Shown: positions 15,366-37,857 of the stretch, in pieces
Position numbering within the stretch: the first letter of the stretch is position 1
Layout of the letters: each line of letters begins with the position of its first letter
Assembly (NCBI RefSeq): GCF_005435165.1
Contig: NZ_SGUC01000030.1
Coordinates: 1-37,857, forward strand
Length of the DNA stretch: 37,857 nt
DNA from: Halorubrum sp. GN11_10-6_MGM
GTDB lineage: Archaea > Halobacteriota > Halobacteria > Halobacteriales > Haloferacaceae
Direction of reading: 5' to 3'
Program-made: the position numbers and the translations under genes
The notes under the pieces: model-generated
What the model was told of the DNA's origin: nothing
Seen by the model: only the letters and a program-made list of their open reading frames with translations
The model's database searches: none

Positions 15366-15923
15366 TCATCGGTCGAGCGCCCGCTCGATGCCCGCGACGA
15401 ACTCCTCGGTGGTGTGGGTCCCCGAGGTCGCCCAGCGGACTCGCCCGGAGGCGTCGACGGCGCGCGCGCTCGGATAGCTCCCGACGTTGAGCCGCGCGGC
15501 GAGTTCGGCGGAAACGTCGGCCGCGACGAGCCAGTCGCCGTCGTTCTCGTGCCACCACTCGACGACCGTCTCCTCGCTGACCGCCTCGCCGACCGGCTCC
15601 GTCGTGACGGAGACGAACAGCACCTCGTCGCCGACCCGGTCGTGGGCCGCGGCGAGGTCGGGCATCTGCTCGGCGCAGGGGGGACACCACGTCCCGAAGA
15701 AGTCGACGAACGTCGGGCGGTCGGGGGCGGGAAGCGTCACCTCGCCGTCGCGACTACCGGGCGCCTCGATGGTGTCGAGCGTCACCGGCTCGACCGGCGC
15801 CGGAGCGTCGCCGTCGGCCTCCCCGCCGCCGAGTGCGTCGGGCACCCCGCCGGTCGCGACGGCGCCGGCCCCGCCGAGGACGCCGACGCTCGCCAGTCCC
15901 GCCAGCAGGTGTCGTCGCCTCAC
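15366..15923 (-). CDS. TlpA-like membrane-anchored thioredoxin
   Basis: A 185-residue extracytoplasmic thiol-disulfide protein. The N-terminus MRRRHLLAGLASVGVLGG looks like a Tat or uncleaved signal anchor. The thioredoxin-like domain has active site WCPPC in FFGTWCPPCAEQMPDL near residue 78, with the family DRPTFVDF strand before it. The start is GTG at 15923, overlapping the stop of the SCO-like gene by three bases (GTGA), which indicates translational coupling. It likely reduces thiols in cytochrome c or copper-delivery proteins, fed by CcdA encoded next. Confidence 0.9.
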   Translation of the reverse strand: MRRRHLLAGLASVGVLGGAGAVATGGVPDALGGGEADGDAPAPVEPVTLDTIEAPGSRDGEVTLPAPDRPTFVDFFGTWCPPCAEQMPDLAAAHDRVGDEVLFVSVTTEPVGEAVSEETVVEWWHENDGDWLVAADVSAELAARLNVGSYPSARAVDASGRVRWATSGTHTTEEFVAGIERALDR

Positions 15924-16624
15924 GCCGTGACCACCTGCCGGAAGTCGTCGACGATCCGTTCGACGTCGGTGGCGGGGCCGCGCGGGTACGCGCGCTCGAC
16001 GATCCCGCGCTTGTTCACGAGCAGGATGAGCCCGTAGTGCGGGAACGCGTACTCCAGGTTCTCGTACCCCTCGGCGTCCGTCTTCTCGATCACGAGCCCG
16101 AAGTTCTCGTCCATCAGCTCCACGCCCGCCTCGTAGCTCTCGGGGCGGAGGAAGTGCCAGTTACCGGCGTCGAGGTCGACCCCGCGCCGGCCCGCGTACT
16201 CGCGGAGCACCTCGGCCGTGTCGCGCTCGGGGTCGAACGTGAGCGGCAGGAACGCGGCCTCGTCGCCGAACCCCTCCTCGGCCGCGACCTCCTGAACGCG
16301 CCGCAGCCGAAGGATGAGCGCCGGACAGACGCCGTCGGGGCAGCTCGTGTAGAAGGAGGTCCACAGGAACGCGCGCTCGCCCTCGAACCCCGCCGTCGAC
16401 ACCTCCTCGCCCGAGATCGGGTCGGGAACGGTGAACTCCGGCATCTCGTCGCCGTGGATCGGGTGGACCGGATCGCCGCGCGTCTGTTCCGGCGGGTCGA
16501 GGACCGTTCCGTCGGCGCCGTATCCGCCCGATTCACCGAGGACGCCGGCGCAGCCGGCGGTGGCGGTCGCGCCGGCGACGACGCCGGACGCGGCGATCGA
16601 GCGGAGGAAGTTGCGGCGGTCCAT
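15920..16624 (-). CDS. SCO1/SenC-type copper chaperone lipoprotein
   Basis: A 234-residue SCO-family protein, which delivers copper to the CuA site of haem-copper oxidases or acts as a thiol reductase. A Tat-like MDRRNFLRSIAASG leader leads to a lipobox (TAGC, Cys25), predicting a membrane-anchored lipoprotein. The SCO fold is shown by LWTSFYTSCPDGVC, LPLTFDPERDT and the ligand His196 in YAFPHYGLILLV. The cysteines C95 and C100 are four residues apart (CPDGVC) rather than the canonical three (CPDVC). The ATG at 16624 is chosen over upstream codons because the signal peptide starts there. Confidence 0.9.
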   Translation of the reverse strand: MDRRNFLRSIAASGVVAGATATAGCAGVLGESGGYGADGTVLDPPEQTRGDPVHPIHGDEMPEFTVPDPISGEEVSTAGFEGERAFLWTSFYTSCPDGVCPALILRLRRVQEVAAEEGFGDEAAFLPLTFDPERDTAEVLREYAGRRGVDLDAGNWHFLRPESYEAGVELMDENFGLVIEKTDAEGYENLEYAFPHYGLILLVNKRGIVERAYPRGPATDVERIVDDFRQVVTA

Positions 16625-33393: not shown

Positions 33394-34800
33394 TCAGGTC
33401 ACGATCTCGAAGCGGGCCCCGCCGTCCCTCCCGTCGGTCGCCGACACCTCCCAGCCGTGCGCGTCGACGATGCGCTCGACGATCGCCAGCCCGAACCCGC
33501 TCCCGTCCTCCCGGGTCGTGTGTCCCTTCTCGAAGACGCGCTCGCGTTCTTCCGGCGGTATGCCGGGGCCGTCGTCCTCGATGAACACGCCGCGCTCGCC
33601 CGGAAGGACGCCCGCGGTGAGCGAGACGCCGCTGCCGCCGTGTTCGACGGCGTTGCGGATGACGTTCTCCAGCGCCTCGGTGAGCCGCGCGGCGTCGCAC
33701 GACAGCGTGACGCTTCCTTCGATCCGCAGGCTGCTCTCCGGCGCGCGGACGTTCTCGTAGCTCTTCGCGACGACCTCCTCGTACGGGACCGGCCGCCGAT
33801 CGCCGAGCGTCTCGCCCTCCTTCGCGAGCGTCAGCAGCTCGTCGATGAGATCGCTCATGCGCGCGACGGCGTCGCGGGCCGTGTCGATGCGCTCGTTGTC
33901 GACCTCCGACGCGGCGAGGCTGAGGTTGCCGGCGGCGACGTTCAGCGGGTTCCGCAGGTCGTGCGACACGGTCGCGGTGAACTCCTCCAGCTGGTCGATC
34001 GTCTCGGTCAGCTCCCGCTGGTACAACTTCCGGTCCGTGATGTCGCGCGTCAACCCGACGAGCGACGTGACTTCGCCGCTCTCGTCGGTGATCGGTTTAC
34101 ACCGCGACTCGACCCAGAGCTGTACCGCGTCCGATTTCTCGACCCGGTACTCGACGACCTGCGAAGTCCCGTTCGACGCGGACTCCATCGCCAGCCGAAC
34201 GCGGTCGACGTCGTCCTCGTGGATCCGATCGAGGAACCCCGTCGGGTCCGTCCGGAGCGCCCCCTCCGTCTGGCCGAAGATCGCCTCGTGGCCGTCGTTG
34301 ATGAAGTACAGCTCCTCCCACGTCGGCGAGAACACCCACCACACCTGGTCCGTCACGGCGGCGATCTCGCGGAGCCGCCTGTTCGTCCGGTCCCGTTCGC
34401 GCTGCGCCCGACGGTGCTCGACGTAGGTGACGATCTTCCGGGCGAGCAGGGGCGCTTGGTTTTCGATCGTGTCTTGGATGACGTAGTCCGTGACGCCGGC
34501 CTCGATGCTCTCGCTCGCGACCGCCTCCGTTCCGGTGTTCGTAAAGAGGAGGAACGGGAGGTCGGGGCGGTCCTCGCGGACCCGTCGCAGGAACTCGACA
34601 CCCGTCGTGTCCGGCATGTGGTGGTCACAGAGCACGCAGTCGATCGGCTTCGCGTCCAGCAGTCGCTCCCCCTCGGCGGCGGAGTCCGCCGCTTCGATCC
34701 GGAGCCGATCGCACTCGTCGCGGAGCCGCGTGGAGACCAGCTCTCGGAGCTGGTCGTCGTCGTTGACGTACAGCAACCGAACGGGCCGCTCGCTACTCAT
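33394..34800 (-). CDS. REC-PAS-histidine kinase signalling protein
   Basis: A 468-residue soluble haloarchaeal sensor. An N-terminal receiver domain (1-115) has acidic pocket residues near Asp14-Asp16 and phosphoacceptor Asp59 in CVLCDHHMPD. A PAS domain spans about 148-258 (WWVFSPTWEELYFINDGHEA). HisKA carries His280 in ATVSHDLRNPL, and the ATPase domain has N, G1 (DDGPGIPPE) and G2 (GSGFGLAIV) boxes. The receiver position that is normally Lys reads Gln109 (TDYVIQD). No transmembrane segment is seen. It is convergent with phoU (gap 11 bp), so a phosphate-sensing link is possible but only by proximity. Minus-strand CCAATTACTAACC (34834-34822) is a possible promoter. Confidence 0.92.
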   Translation of the reverse strand: MSSERPVRLLYVNDDDQLRELVSTRLRDECDRLRIEAADSAAEGERLLDAKPIDCVLCDHHMPDTTGVEFLRRVREDRPDLPFLLFTNTGTEAVASESIEAGVTDYVIQDTIENQAPLLARKIVTYVEHRRAQRERDRTNRRLREIAAVTDQVWWVFSPTWEELYFINDGHEAIFGQTEGALRTDPTGFLDRIHEDDVDRVRLAMESASNGTSQVVEYRVEKSDAVQLWVESRCKPITDESGEVTSLVGLTRDITDRKLYQRELTETIDQLEEFTATVSHDLRNPLNVAAGNLSLAASEVDNERIDTARDAVARMSDLIDELLTLAKEGETLGDRRPVPYEEVVAKSYENVRAPESSLRIEGSVTLSCDAARLTEALENVIRNAVEHGGSGVSLTAGVLPGERGVFIEDDGPGIPPEERERVFEKGHTTREDGSGFGLAIVERIVDAHGWEVSATDGRDGGARFEIVT

Positions 34801-35014: not shown

Positions 35015-35374
35015 TCAGTTCTTTTCGACGAGTTCGCCGTACTCGTTGGTCTCGTAAGGTCCGCTTCCGCTGTCATGCCCGACGGTCTCCGAGCGCTCGC
35101 GCCGTGACTCCGGGGCGTTCGAACCGGTCCCTGTCGACACCGGGCTCTCCTTCTGTGACGAACGGCCGGTCGCGTGGCCGGCGCTCGTGTCGTCCGCCTC
35201 CGCCAGCGTCGAGAGCAACCCTCCGACAAACCCGACGATGTAGGGGAGTGCGTTCACCACCAACAGCCCTAAGACGATCACGGACGCGACCGCGATGAAA
35301 AACAGTAGAAACAGGAGGCCGAAGACGGCCGTCAGGACATCCGAAAGGGCGGAGAGTGGGACCAGATGGACCAC
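35015..35374 (-). CDS. small membrane protein with disordered polar tail
   Basis: A 119-residue protein that I do not recognise. After VVHLVPLSALSDVLTAVF come two closely spaced hydrophobic helices (about residues 14-39 and 42-63, LLFLLFFIAVASVIVL and VVNALPYIVGFVGGLL). A polar, Ser/Thr/Glu-rich tail of about 50 residues ends in ETNEYGELVEKN. The frame continues upstream into the IS6 element. I chose the GTG at 35374 because minus-strand GGTTTAATATTC (35410-35399) is a TATA 26-36 bp before it. The IS6 insertion lies 53 bp upstream of the start and leaves this box intact. Confidence 0.6.
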   Translation of the reverse strand: MVHLVPLSALSDVLTAVFGLLFLLFFIAVASVIVLGLLVVNALPYIVGFVGGLLSTLAEADDTSAGHATGRSSQKESPVSTGTGSNAPESRRERSETVGHDSGSGPYETNEYGELVEKN

Positions 35375-35410: not shown

Positions 35411-35418
35411 TTCGTCCG

Positions 35419-35426
35419 GGGGTCGG
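35419..35426. repeat. left 8-bp target-site duplication of IS6-type element
   Basis: GGGGTCGG is identical to 36117-36124 on the other side of the element. Eight-bp duplications are typical of IS6-family insertion. Confidence 0.9.
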
Positions 35427-36116
35427 CGCGGTGTTAAGTTAAGGAAGAGGCGGAGCGAAGTTCTAGTGCCTATGCCAGAAATCGCCCGCCTCACCGAGTG
35501 TACCGAGTGGATCGACTTGGAGTTTGTGGAGCGAGAGCGGACACCCCGGTCGATCATTGAAAAGGGTATTCGCCACCATCTCGCAGGATTATCACTTTCG
35601 AATACAGTTATTCTTCTTGAGGAATTGGGTGTCAAGAGAAGTCGTGTCGCTGTTCACAACTGGGTACAGAAAGCTGATTTACAGCCAGCTGGCGGTGAAA
35701 GCCCGGATCGCGTTGCGGTCGATCAAAAGGCGATCCGGATCAATGACGAGCAGTATTGGCTGTATGCTGCCGTCGATCCGGAAACAAACAGAATCCTTCA
35801 TTCACGGCTATTTCCGACGTACACGATACCGATCGCACGAGAATTTCTCACAGAATTGGCCGAGAAACACGACGTTGAAGACGCCCTGTTTCTCGTCGAT
35901 GACGCCGACGATCTGATCGGTGGGCTCCGCCGCGAAAACTATAGCTACCGCGTCGAACAACACGGCTTCAGAAACTCCGTAGAACGTGTCTTTAGAGAAG
36001 TAGAACGACGAACCTCTTCGTTTTCAAACTGTTTCAGCCACGTCGATCCACCGACCGCGGAAAACTGGTTACAAGCCCACGCCGTCTGGTGGAATCATGT
36101 TTAAGTTAACACGACG
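35427..36116 (+). mobile_element. IS6-family insertion sequence (690 bp)
   Basis: The element is bounded by inverted repeats CGCGGTGTTAAGTTAA (35427-35442) and, at the right, the complement of CGTCGTGTTAACTTAA (36101-36116), matching at 13 of 16 positions. It is flanked by a perfect 8-bp duplication GGGGTCGG. It holds a single DDE transposase gene. Base composition is visibly more AT-rich than the surroundings. The perfect duplication shows a simple insertion, not a recombination-derived composite. Confidence 0.93.
35472..36104 (+). CDS. IS6-family DDE transposase
   Basis: A 210-residue transposase of haloarchaeal IS6 type (ISH15-like). The DDE residues are in VAVDQKAIRI (first Asp), FLVDDADDLI (second Asp region) and SVERVFREVERRTSSFSNCF (Glu). 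The N-terminal helix-turn-helix region includes RTPRSIIEKGIRHHLAGLSL, followed by VKRSRVAVHNWVQKA. Length is normal for the haloarchaeal group and no frameshift is seen, so it may be active. ATG at 35472 (MPEIARLTEC). The stop lies within the right inverted repeat. Confidence 0.93.
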   Translation: MPEIARLTECTEWIDLEFVERERTPRSIIEKGIRHHLAGLSLSNTVILLEELGVKRSRVAVHNWVQKADLQPAGGESPDRVAVDQKAIRINDEQYWLYAAVDPETNRILHSRLFPTYTIPIAREFLTELAEKHDVEDALFLVDDADDLIGGLRRENYSYRVEQHGFRNSVERVFREVERRTSSFSNCFSHVDPPTAENWLQAHAVWWNHV

Positions 36117-36131: not shown

Positions 36132-36785
36132 CTACGACAGCCGGAGGTCGGACACGTCCTCGTCGTCCAACTCGCCGTCGAGGTCGTCGAACACCGCCTC
36201 GGGGTCGAGCGATTCCCCCTCCGTCGTTCGCTCTCGTTCGAACTCGGCGTCCCACTCGTCGCGGAGCTGCGAATCGCCGTGGAGGCGGTCGGTCGACGCA
36301 GAAAAGGACTCGACCACGTCACGAGCGGCGACGCCGGCGGTGTCGAGCCGCTGGGTCATCTCCTCGATGGTCAGCTTCTCTTGGGAGAACATCTCGACTA
36401 ACTCCTCGCGGTCGAGTTCCATCAGGCGCTCCCAGTACCGGTCGTTACGGAGCTCCCGCATCTCGTAGACGTTGAGGAAGTTAGACACCGTCTGGGACAT
36501 CTGGTCCACGACGTCGAGTTTCCCTTCAACCGTTTCGAGGCGGTCGTTGACGGCCTCGGCCTCACGGAGGGCGGTTTCTGCCGCGTCCTCGTCTCCCGCC
36601 TCGCGGGCCTCCATGTACCGTTGTTTCAGATTCTCGTGTTTCTCCTTGAGGCGGTCGCGATCGGTCGAGAGCTGCTCGCGTTTCGCGTTGAGTTCGACCT
36701 GCTTGTCGCGGTGTTCGGACCGGTCGAGTTCGAGCGGATGAGTCGTGTCGTCGCCGAAGAGGAGCGTCGAGAGTCGGTCGATCAT
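36132..36785 (-). CDS. coiled-coil protein with ESCRT-III/Snf7-like layout
   Basis: A 217-residue, highly charged helical protein with no signal peptide. An amphipathic N-terminus (MIDRLSTLLFGDD) is followed by a long helical hairpin over about 22-110 (ELNAKREQLSTDRDRLKEKH; then ETALREAEAVNDRLETVEGK and VVDQMSQTVSNFLNVYEM). A shorter helix (LMELDREELVEMFSQEKLTI, 121-140) and an acidic C-terminal helix with VFDDLDGELDDEDVSDLRLS end it. Length, basic-to-acidic polarity and helix order match Snf7/ESCRT-III and, less closely, PspA/Vipp1. The gene upstream, 41 bp away on the same strand, is a Vps4-like ATPase, the usual ESCRT-III partner. The assignment is inference; a plain coiled-coil adaptor is the alternative. 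ATG 36785 is chosen to give MIDRLSTLL directly after the gap. Confidence 0.6.
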   Translation of the reverse strand: MIDRLSTLLFGDDTTHPLELDRSEHRDKQVELNAKREQLSTDRDRLKEKHENLKQRYMEAREAGDEDAAETALREAEAVNDRLETVEGKLDVVDQMSQTVSNFLNVYEMRELRNDRYWERLMELDREELVEMFSQEKLTIEEMTQRLDTAGVAARDVVESFSASTDRLHGDSQLRDEWDAEFERERTTEGESLDPEAVFDDLDGELDDEDVSDLRLS

Positions 36786-36826
36786 GTGGGTACGAATGTG
36801 GGGGGAATTTGTAGTTGTTGGGTGTG

Positions 36827-37857
36827 TTACCGCTCGCTTCGAGCGGACGGCCCCGTTCCGTACTGCGCGTTCCACTCGTCGTACTCGGATATCTCCGCCG
36901 CCGACAGCGACGCGCTCGTCTGCTCGAACGCCGTCCCCACGTCTCTCGGCGTGATGGGCTCGATCGTGAGGTCGTAGTCGCGCGCTCCGCCGAGACCGCG
37001 GTCAGCAACGGAGACGAGATCCGGGTTCGACCGGCGCACCATCGCGTCCACCGAGCGCCGACACAGCGCCTCGATGTCGCTCCCGGTGAACTGTCGGTCC
37101 ACGCAGGCGGAGGCGATCGCGGCCGCGGGCGAGGCGGCGCCGGTCGCGTCGACACCGTCCGGGGCGAACGTCGTCGGCGGCGAGTCGGCGAACTCGACTC
37201 CCCCGCGAACGCTGTGGATCCGGACGACCTCTTCGGCGGCGTCGACGCCCGGTAGCGGGATGAGGAGGCGCTCGGGGAAGCGTCGTCGAACCGCGTTGTC
37301 GAGGTCGGCCGGCTTGTTCGTCGCGCCGAGGACCATCACGAACTCGTCTCCCCCCTTGTCGATCCCGTCCAGCTCCGAAAGGAGGGTGTTCAGCACCCGC
37401 CGAGACGTCTGATCGGAGTTGTCGTCGCGCGACTGCGTCAGCGCGTCGATCTCGTCGAGGAACACGACCGACGGACTCATCTCCGCCGCGAGGTCGAACA
37501 GCGCGGTGATCTGTTTCGACGACTCCCCGAAGTACTTCGACAGGAGACCGCCGAGCTTCACGTCGAAGAACGTCGCGTCGAGCGACCCCGCGACCGCCGA
37601 TGCCAACAGCGTCTTTCCGGTCCCCGGCGGTCCGAACATGAGAACCCGGTCGGTCGCGGCGACCGCCGAGGGCGTCCCCTCCACCGCACCGAGCGCGATC
37701 GCACGCTTCAGTCGGTTCTGAACAGATTCCAAGCCGCCGATATCCTCCCAAGTCACCTCTGTCTCCGAGACGAACGACTCGACGCGGCTCTTGAACTCCC
37801 CGTCGTCTTCGGAGTCACTCGAACCGCTCCCACCCGCCCCGCCGCTGCCGCCTGTTC
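36827..37857 (-). CDS. Vps4-like (meiotic-clade) AAA ATPase, N-terminus outside window
   Basis: A single AAA module of the Vps4/katanin/spastin type; the frame stays open to the window edge. From the left edge of the protein as seen: a Gly/Ser linker (TGGSGGAGGSGSSDSEDD), then FKSRVESFVSETEVTWEDIG followed by GLE, the meiotic-clade entry motif. Next come Walker A GPPGTGKT, pore loop LLSKYFGESSKQ, Walker B VVFLDEID, a sensor-1-like VLGATNKPADLD, and arginine finger VRRRFPERL. A C-terminal helix region includes FTGSDIEALCRRSVDAMVRR. Such enzymes remodel filaments such as ESCRT-III. The linker before the AAA core suggests a further N-terminal domain (MIT in Vps4) lying beyond position 37857. The GTG at 37756 is not likely the true start. 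Confidence 0.85.
   Translation of the reverse strand, partial: TGGSGGAGGSGSSDSEDDGEFKSRVESFVSETEVTWEDIGGLESVQNRLKRAIALGAVEGTPSAVAATDRVLMFGPPGTGKTLLASAVAGSLDATFFDVKLGGLLSKYFGESSKQITALFDLAAEMSPSVVFLDEIDALTQSRDDNSDQTSRRVLNTLLSELDGIDKGGDEFVMVLGATNKPADLDNAVRRRFPERLLIPLPGVDAAEEVVRIHSVRGGVEFADSPPTTFAPDGVDATGAASPAAAIASACVDRQFTGSDIEALCRRSVDAMVRRSNPDLVSVADRGLGGARDYDLTIEPITPRDVGTAFEQTSASLSAAEISEYDEWNAQYGTGPSARSER

What the first reader, a model, noticed from the sequence alone, without database searches (positions are those of the whole stretch)
36132..37857. Vps4-like ATPase paired with an ESCRT-III-like coiled-coil protein in a haloarchaeon
Seen: a meiotic-clade AAA module with a flexible N-terminal linker, and 41 bp downstream on the same strand a 217-aa protein with an amphipathic N-terminus, a long helical hairpin, a helix like the Snf7 alpha-4 region and an acidic C-terminal helix. 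Known: Vps4/CdvC disassembles ESCRT-III/CdvB polymers, and their genes are commonly adjacent in archaea that have them; Halobacteria divide with FtsZ and are generally considered to lack Cdv. Inferred: a haloarchaeal membrane-remodelling module (vesicles, repair, viral exit or defence). The adjacent small two-helix membrane protein could be an anchor.
Basis: partly seen in the sequence, partly recalled or inferred. Interest (0 to 1): 0.8.

Follow-up and report, generated by a model that had tools for sequence, protein, structure and literature searches.

The report
Haloarchaeal ESCRT-III/Vps4 membrane-remodelling gene cluster
This salt-loving archaeon carries a version of the ESCRT machine that eukaryotic cells use to pinch and repair membranes; such haloarchaeal versions were already catalogued in 2024, but here the genes sit in a larger accessory cluster that also includes a predicted DNA-cutting enzyme.

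Summary
On the minus strand, a Vps4-type AAA ATPase (36827-37855, cut by the contig end) is followed after 41 bp by a 217-aa protein with an ESCRT-III-like hairpin. The missing N-terminus lies on contig C160 of the same genome. It is a MIT domain: the eight best structural matches among 350,542 PDB chains are Vps4 MIT domains. The ATPase groups with Thermococci and Archaeoglobales Vps4, apart from the genome's own Cdc48 and PAN. The 217-aa protein is a diverged ESCRT-III: fold and post-hairpin sequence support it, the hairpin sequence alone does not. Vps4 is next to an ESCRT-III-like gene in every locus examined.

It is not a new kind: Makarova et al. 2024 described haloarchaeal "Main" and "Halo_FHA" ESCRT systems, and this locus fits them. 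FtsZ is present, so division is unlikely. The system is accessory (about 3-5% of haloarchaeal species sampled), sometimes plasmid-borne.

Possibly new: a Mrr-type nuclease with intact catalytic residues, full-length only in ESCRT-bearing genomes (7 of 7 best hits among 391) and often inside the operon. Makarova's main text does not mention it; the supplement could not be read.

The parts
36827..37855 (-). Vps4-type AAA ATPase, C-terminal 342 residues (Gly-rich linker, AAA module, C-terminal helix region); the N-terminal MIT domain lies on contig C160:198-419 of the same genome
   Evidence: AAA 8.9e-39; N-terminus; tree; MIT fold
36132..36785 (-). 217-aa diverged ESCRT-III-like protein (amphipathic N-terminal helix, long helical hairpin, short helices, acidic tail)
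   Evidence: Snf7 5.6e-4, under cut-off; fold; post-hairpin match; homologue beside ESCRT-III and Vps4 genes on plasmids
36786..36826 (-). 41-bp gap between the Vps4 and ESCRT-III genes, same strand (probable co-transcription, inferred)
35015..35374 (-). small membrane protein with two hydrophobic helices and a long tail ending YGELVE...; directly downstream of the ESCRT-III gene in H. californiense
35418..36116 (+). insertion sequence (transposase about 35472-36104; weak DDE_Tnp_IS240 hit 0.071) between the ESCRT-III and membrane-protein genes; absent at this site in H. californiense; not part of the system

Best explanation
This is the Vps4/ESCRT-III core of an accessory haloarchaeal ESCRT system of the type Makarova et al. 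called Main or Halo_FHA. Shown here: a MIT-AAA ATPase with intact catalytic motifs; two ESCRT-III-like paralogues in the same cluster (202 aa on contig C160, 217 aa in the window); small membrane proteins; a 168-aa protein and a 686-aa coiled-coil protein found with Vps4/ESCRT-III in other archaea too; a putative FHA protein; a Mrr-type nuclease; and kinases and a PP2C phosphatase in related loci. Inferred: the ESCRT-III-like proteins assemble as filaments on the inner face of the cell membrane, positioned by the small membrane proteins and the coiled-coil adaptor; Vps4 hexamers bind their tails through MIT and thread subunits through the pore, which remodels and disassembles the polymer; phosphorylation, read by the FHA protein, switches assembly. 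The likely outcome is membrane budding, sorting or repair under particular conditions, not cell division.
For: MIT: the 74-residue N-terminus folds at mean pLDDT 91 into three helices, and the top eight of 350,542 PDB chains are Vps4 MIT domains; a sequence profile picks Sulfolobus Vps4 MIT 2w2u and 2v6y and CdvC 4lcb among its natural hits. Vps4: the window AAA joins Thermococci and Archaeoglobales Vps4 at 100/99 support, apart from the genome's own Cdc48 and PAN; those relatives pass the Vps4_C cut-off. ESCRT-III: fold matches; with the hairpin cut away, a match to Thermococci/Archaeoglobales ESCRT-III over 45 columns at 29% identity (score 26.9), and to all other families at 20.4 against a maximum of 16.2 in 100 column shuffles; a profile of related ESCRT-III-like proteins finds CdvB2 and CdvB first in the PDB. 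Adjacency in all loci examined. Seven tubulin/FtsZ-superfamily genes in the genome.
Against: No polymer, membrane or ATPase assay. Pfam Snf7 on the 217-aa protein is under its cut-off (20.1 against 27.3 bits). Its hairpin matches seryl-tRNA synthetase about as well as ESCRT-III, and VIA Z-scores of 9-10 are shared with unrelated hairpins; Foldseek E-values are all above 0.3. Vps4_C in the window protein is below its cut-off (E 0.044). No clear MIT-interacting motif was seen in the tail by eye. The C125-C160 junction is inferred, not sequenced.
Confidence: 0.88

Rival explanations
1. The cluster is an anti-virus or plasmid-conflict system: the ESCRT module senses or reshapes the membrane under kinase/FHA control and the Mrr nuclease is the effector that cuts DNA. 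(Not exclusive of the best explanation: it names a purpose for the same machine.)
For: Mrr-type nuclease with invariant E, D and QxK, full-length only in ESCRT-bearing genomes, in or near the operon in Halorubrum, Halobaculum, genome G374 and Halarchaeum; patchy spread; plasmid location; catalytic part matches PADLOC mREase_IV and PDC-S02.
Against: No nuclease of this family in several ESCRT loci (L043-L046, L052, L054, L056). PADLOC hits cover only generic catalytic or kinase domains. No known defence system matched as a whole. Patchy spread fits any accessory trait.
Confidence: 0.2
2. The 217-aa protein is not an ESCRT-III polymer subunit but a generic coiled-coil adaptor or substrate of the Vps4-like ATPase; the ESCRT-III function is carried by the 202-aa paralogue alone.
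For: Weak sequence signal; the SerRS control scores nearly as high, in the hairpin. Several loci have Vps4 with a single ESCRT-III-like gene and no 217-aa type (L043-L046, L048).
Against: Post-hairpin match to other ESCRT-III families exceeds all shuffles; the gene lies beside the second ESCRT-III gene and Vps4 in Halomicrobium and Halarchaeum; helix layout.
Confidence: 0.1
3. A Cdv-type cell division module.
For: A Vps4/ESCRT-III pair, as in CdvC/CdvB.
Against: The genome has seven tubulin/FtsZ-superfamily genes including two strong hits; the 217-aa gene is absent from nearly all sister species.
Confidence: 0.02

Closest known systems
Main-clade euryarchaeal ESCRT systems (Makarova et al. 2024, PMC10936438)
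   Same: Vps4 with MIT, ESCRT-III genes, and two companion proteins that fit the description of arCOG08177 (Cas2-like N-terminus) and arCOG09748 (coiled coil, C-terminal winged helix); homologues of both sit beside Vps4/ESCRT-III in Thermococci and Archaeoglobales loci.
   Different: One ESCRT-III gene lies downstream of Vps4 in Halorubrum; a putative FHA protein and a Mrr-type nuclease are present. arCOG profiles were not available to confirm the assignment.
Halo_FHA ESCRT systems (Makarova et al. 2024, PMC10936438)
   Same: Haloarchaeal; a small FHA-type protein, kinase and phosphatase neighbours, sometimes arCOG08177/09748. One of our loci is on plasmid pHmuk01 of Halomicrobium mukohataei, a species already used as source of an ESCRT-III-like query by Liu et al. 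2021 (PMC8281802).
   Different: Mrr nuclease not mentioned in the main text; the FHA assignment here rests on a weak hit (Yop-YscD_cpl, 0.15).
CdvB/CdvC of Sulfolobales
   Same: ESCRT-III plus MIT-AAA; Sulfolobales Vps4 MIT is the closest solved fold.
   Different: The cell has FtsZ-family genes and the module is accessory.
PspA/Vipp1
   Same: Same superfamily hairpin (PspA Z 11.1).
   Different: PspA has no Vps4 partner (established knowledge); Pfam PspA_IM30 15.2 bits, below cut-off.

Membership tests
Vps4 (ESCRT-IV) | N-terminal MIT domain | tested here: met
   On C160:198-419; top eight PDB matches are Vps4 MIT. Pfam MIT on the single sequence is weak (0.017), 1.1e-4 in the best member.
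Vps4 (ESCRT-IV) | Single AAA module with Walker A/B and pore loop | tested here: met
   AAA 8.9e-39; motifs read.
Vps4 (ESCRT-IV) | Groups with Vps4, not with Cdc48 or PAN | tested here: met
   100/99 support with Thermococci and Archaeoglobales Vps4; no named Sulfolobus or eukaryote Vps4 was in the tree.
Vps4 (ESCRT-IV) | Vps4_C terminal helix | tested here: inconclusive
   E 0.044, under cut-off; relatives L062 and L064 pass.
Vps4 (ESCRT-IV) | ESCRT-III gene in the neighbourhood | tested here: met
   All loci examined.
ESCRT-III superfamily | Long alpha1-alpha2 hairpin followed by short helices | tested here: met
   AlphaFold model, mean pLDDT 70; Snf7 core rmsd 0.9 over 78 residues.
ESCRT-III superfamily | Sequence profile match (Snf7) | tested here: inconclusive
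   5.6e-4 but 20.1 bits, below cut-off 27.3; SerRS control nearly equal in the hairpin; post-hairpin signal above shuffles.
ESCRT-III superfamily | Less acidic core, acidic tail | tested here: met
   Net charge per 100 aa -9 in the hairpin, -25 in the tail.
ESCRT-III superfamily | Membrane-bound polymer; MIT-interacting tail | not testable with these tools
Main-clade / Halo_FHA ESCRT system | arCOG08177, arCOG09748 and FHA companions | tested here: inconclusive
   Proteins that fit the description found in the same cluster; arCOG profiles not available; FHA-type hit weak (0.15).
Cdv division system | No FtsZ-based division in the same cell | tested here: not met
   Seven tubulin/FtsZ-superfamily genes in the genome.
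Cdv division system | CdvA | not tested
   No search for CdvA was run.
Mrr-type restriction endonuclease (361-aa companion on C160) | Mrr_cat domain with catalytic E, D and QxK | tested here: met
   Pfam 3.8e-23; E240, D268, Q282 and K284 invariant in six homologues. Activity not tested.

The most novel reading that the evidence does not exclude
A nuclease-armed ESCRT system: in several haloarchaeal lineages a phosphorylation-controlled ESCRT-III/Vps4 membrane machine is genetically tied to a dedicated Mrr-type DNA nuclease with its own N-terminal helical domain, which would link membrane remodelling to DNA cutting, for example in defence against virus entry or exit, DNA uptake or plasmid conflict.
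Probability: 0.3. Interest if true: 0.85.

Novelty: new member of a known kind. Interest (0 to 1): 0.5.

Why it matters
Haloarchaea include genetically tractable species and divide with FtsZ, so an accessory ESCRT-III/Vps4 system there would let one ask what ESCRT does apart from division. The recurring nuclease partner, if confirmed, would be a functional clue that the published comparative study does not discuss in its main text.

Tried and rejected
Viral contigs: no relative of the 217-aa protein. Profile search of the 217-aa family over the class: many weak hits at profile positions about 35-100; the ones I read out are seryl-tRNA synthetase coils, so they were used as a negative control, which lowered my trust in the hairpin similarity. 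Solved-structure search of the 217-aa protein alone gave only designed and generic coils. The 168-aa companion profile against the PDB: nothing, so its Cas2 likeness rests on the paper. Mrr full-length profile against the PDB: nothing at 0.001. The PADLOC IetA hits of the ATPase (7e-37) only reflect the shared AAA module. JetC and LmuB hits to the coiled-coil proteins were set aside as coil matches. Genome G364 matched the MIT-linker query weakly (1.5e-4) but no Vps4 or ESCRT-III gene was found there, so it was dropped. The first hhalign of A2 against A5 shared one sequence between the two sides and was redone without overlap.

Full report
Observation. The window is the whole of contig C125 of a genome of 3.32 Mb in 200 contigs; its nearest relative with the locus is Halorubrum californiense, of the same genus. 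On the minus strand a AAA ATPase runs from the contig end to 36827 and is followed after 41 bp by a 217-aa ORF, 36785 to 36132. Pfam gives AAA at 8.9e-39 and, for the 217-aa protein, Snf7 at 5.6e-4, under its cut-off.

The missing N-terminus. Halorubrum californiense DSM 19288 (G033, loci L010, L021, L050; 94% identity over the 217-aa protein; named) has an intact gene of 442 aa starting MNVDGYKRDILRNQYEELL. The same 74 residues are encoded, 100% identical, at C160:198-419 of the window's genome, so the gene is broken by the assembly in its Gly-rich linker. The outermost bases of C160 do not continue the ATPase, so the junction is inferred from H. californiense, with which both contigs are collinear. 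The 74 residues fold into three helices at mean pLDDT 91. The eight best matches in the PDB are all Vps4 MIT domains, archaeal and human. A profile of eleven N-termini finds Sulfolobales Vps4 MIT and CdvC among its natural hits, although some designed helical repeats score higher there.

The ATPase is a Vps4. In a tree of AAA modules it joins Thermococci and Archaeoglobales Vps4 with 100/99 support and stands apart from the genome's own Cdc48 and PAN modules. Those relatives pass the Vps4_C cut-off; the window protein only hints at it (0.044). A second, very diverged haloarchaeal type (Halobaculum, Halonotius, Haloquadratum, Halorhabdus) has a similar N-terminus but forms a separate long branch.

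The 217-aa protein. The model (mean pLDDT 70) has an N-terminal helix, a long hairpin and four short helices. A blind search returns Asgard ESCRT-IIIB, CdvB, Snf7, CHMP2A/3, PspA and Vipp1 repeatedly, with no E-value below 0.3. VIA gives Z 11.2 for Asgard ESCRT-IIIB, 11.1 for PspA and 10.0 for Snf7, but unrelated hairpins also reach 9-10, so the fold alone is not proof. As a control I used haloarchaeal seryl-tRNA synthetase coils: the window family matches their hairpin at 93% hhalign probability, about as well as it matches all other ESCRT-III families together (95.7%), but over 59 columns against 122. With the hairpin cut away, the remaining part still matches Thermococci/Archaeoglobales ESCRT-III over 45 columns at 29% identity (YWERLMELDREELVE against IWDKLRNVEPEQLEQ; score 26.9). 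The match to all other families scores 20.4, above the best of 100 column shuffles at 16.2. A profile of related ESCRT-III-like proteins finds CdvB2 and CdvB first in the PDB. Core and tail charge differ as in ESCRT-III. I conclude that it is a diverged ESCRT-III, with good but not complete certainty.

The cluster. Around the two genes (C160/L049 and L021/L050) lie a second ESCRT-III-like gene (202 aa), a 147-aa protein, a divergent pair of a 168-aa protein and a 686-aa coiled-coil protein, a 217-aa putative FHA protein, a Mrr-type nuclease and two small membrane proteins. Related loci add Ser/Thr kinases and a PP2C phosphatase. In every locus with a Vps4 of this family an ESCRT-III-like gene is in the immediate neighbourhood.

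Known or new. Makarova et al. 2024 (PMC10936438) identified archaeal Vps4 by a MIT domain or ESCRT neighbours, and defined Main, Halo_FHA and Halo_adaptin clades in Halobacteriales, with arCOG08177, arCOG09748, an FHA family, kinases and phosphatases. The cluster fits that description. Liu et al. 2021 (PMC8281802) already used a Halomicrobium mukohataei ESCRT-III-like protein as a query; one of our loci is on plasmid pHmuk01 of that species. The window is therefore a new member of a known kind.

What may be new. The 361-aa neighbour on C160 carries a Mrr_cat nuclease domain (3.8e-23). Homologues are in the operons of Halobaculum saliterrae (L048, overlapping PP2C, two genes from Vps4) and genome G374 (PP2C-Mrr-FHA-Vps4-ESCRT-III-membrane protein), on the Halarchaeum plasmid pCBA1220-02 within the same cluster, and on pHmuk01 about 34 kb from the ESCRT genes. 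In genome G175 (Halomicrobium katesii by its contig) it is 1.3 Mb away on the same scaffold. Over 391 class genomes the seven best hits (E 9e-165 to 3e-63) are all in ESCRT-bearing genomes; the next hits score far lower, mostly cover the catalytic domain, and lie mostly in ORFs of other lengths. The 168-aa family, a marker of the system, occurs in 16 of 322 genomes (5%), so the association is unlikely by chance even if only four lineages are independent (inference). Catalytic E, D and QxK are invariant in six homologues. Makarova's main text contains no mention of restriction, Mrr or endonuclease; its supplementary tables could not be read here, so novelty of this link is not established.

Mechanism. 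Shown: gene content, domains, gene order, patchy distribution (2 of 52 genomes of the genus by the 217-aa protein; about 10 of 391 by the MIT-linker query), plasmid copies, and FtsZ-family genes in the same genome. Inferred: ESCRT-III filaments on the membrane, Vps4 binding through MIT and disassembling them, regulation by kinase, phosphatase and FHA, and a role in budding, sorting or repair. The nuclease raises the possibility of a defence or DNA-handling role, for which there is no direct evidence.

Noticed in passing
   Followed up: yes
window 35015-35374; L049:6468-6899; L021:7292-7645 and 15740-16000: The two kinds of small membrane protein in the Halorubrum cluster share a C-terminal YG[EQ]L[VT]E motif; among 137 called ORFs of the related loci only theirs matched. 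Possible shared docking tail.
   Followed up: partly
window 35418-36116: Insertion sequence between the ESCRT-III gene and its downstream membrane-protein gene, with near-matching inverted ends (TGTTAA.TTAA) and a repeated CGGGGGTCGGCG at both sides; no ORF broken.
   Followed up: partly
L048:5589-6710, L052:7472-8611, L054:7532-8695, L056:7851-9005: A second, strongly diverged haloarchaeal Vps4-like ATPase with a MIT-like N-terminus, beside an ESCRT-III-like gene and usually an FHA-type gene.
   Followed up: partly
L097, L136 (pHmuk01 48-107 kb) and L098 (Halarchaeum pCBA1220-02): Very large plasmid-borne clusters around the ESCRT genes with several Ser/Thr kinases, PP2C, TCP-1/cpn60-like proteins and repeat proteins, and a Fic-family and a vWA protein on pHmuk01.
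   Followed up: no
window 33394-34800: Gene of response-regulator/histidine-kinase type between phoU and the cluster here, absent at this place in H. californiense.
   Followed up: no
L021:13934-14989 / L050:12636-13691: The Mrr gene of H. californiense is split into two ORFs, with an ambiguous residue near the split; sequencing error or real break not decided.
   Followed up: no
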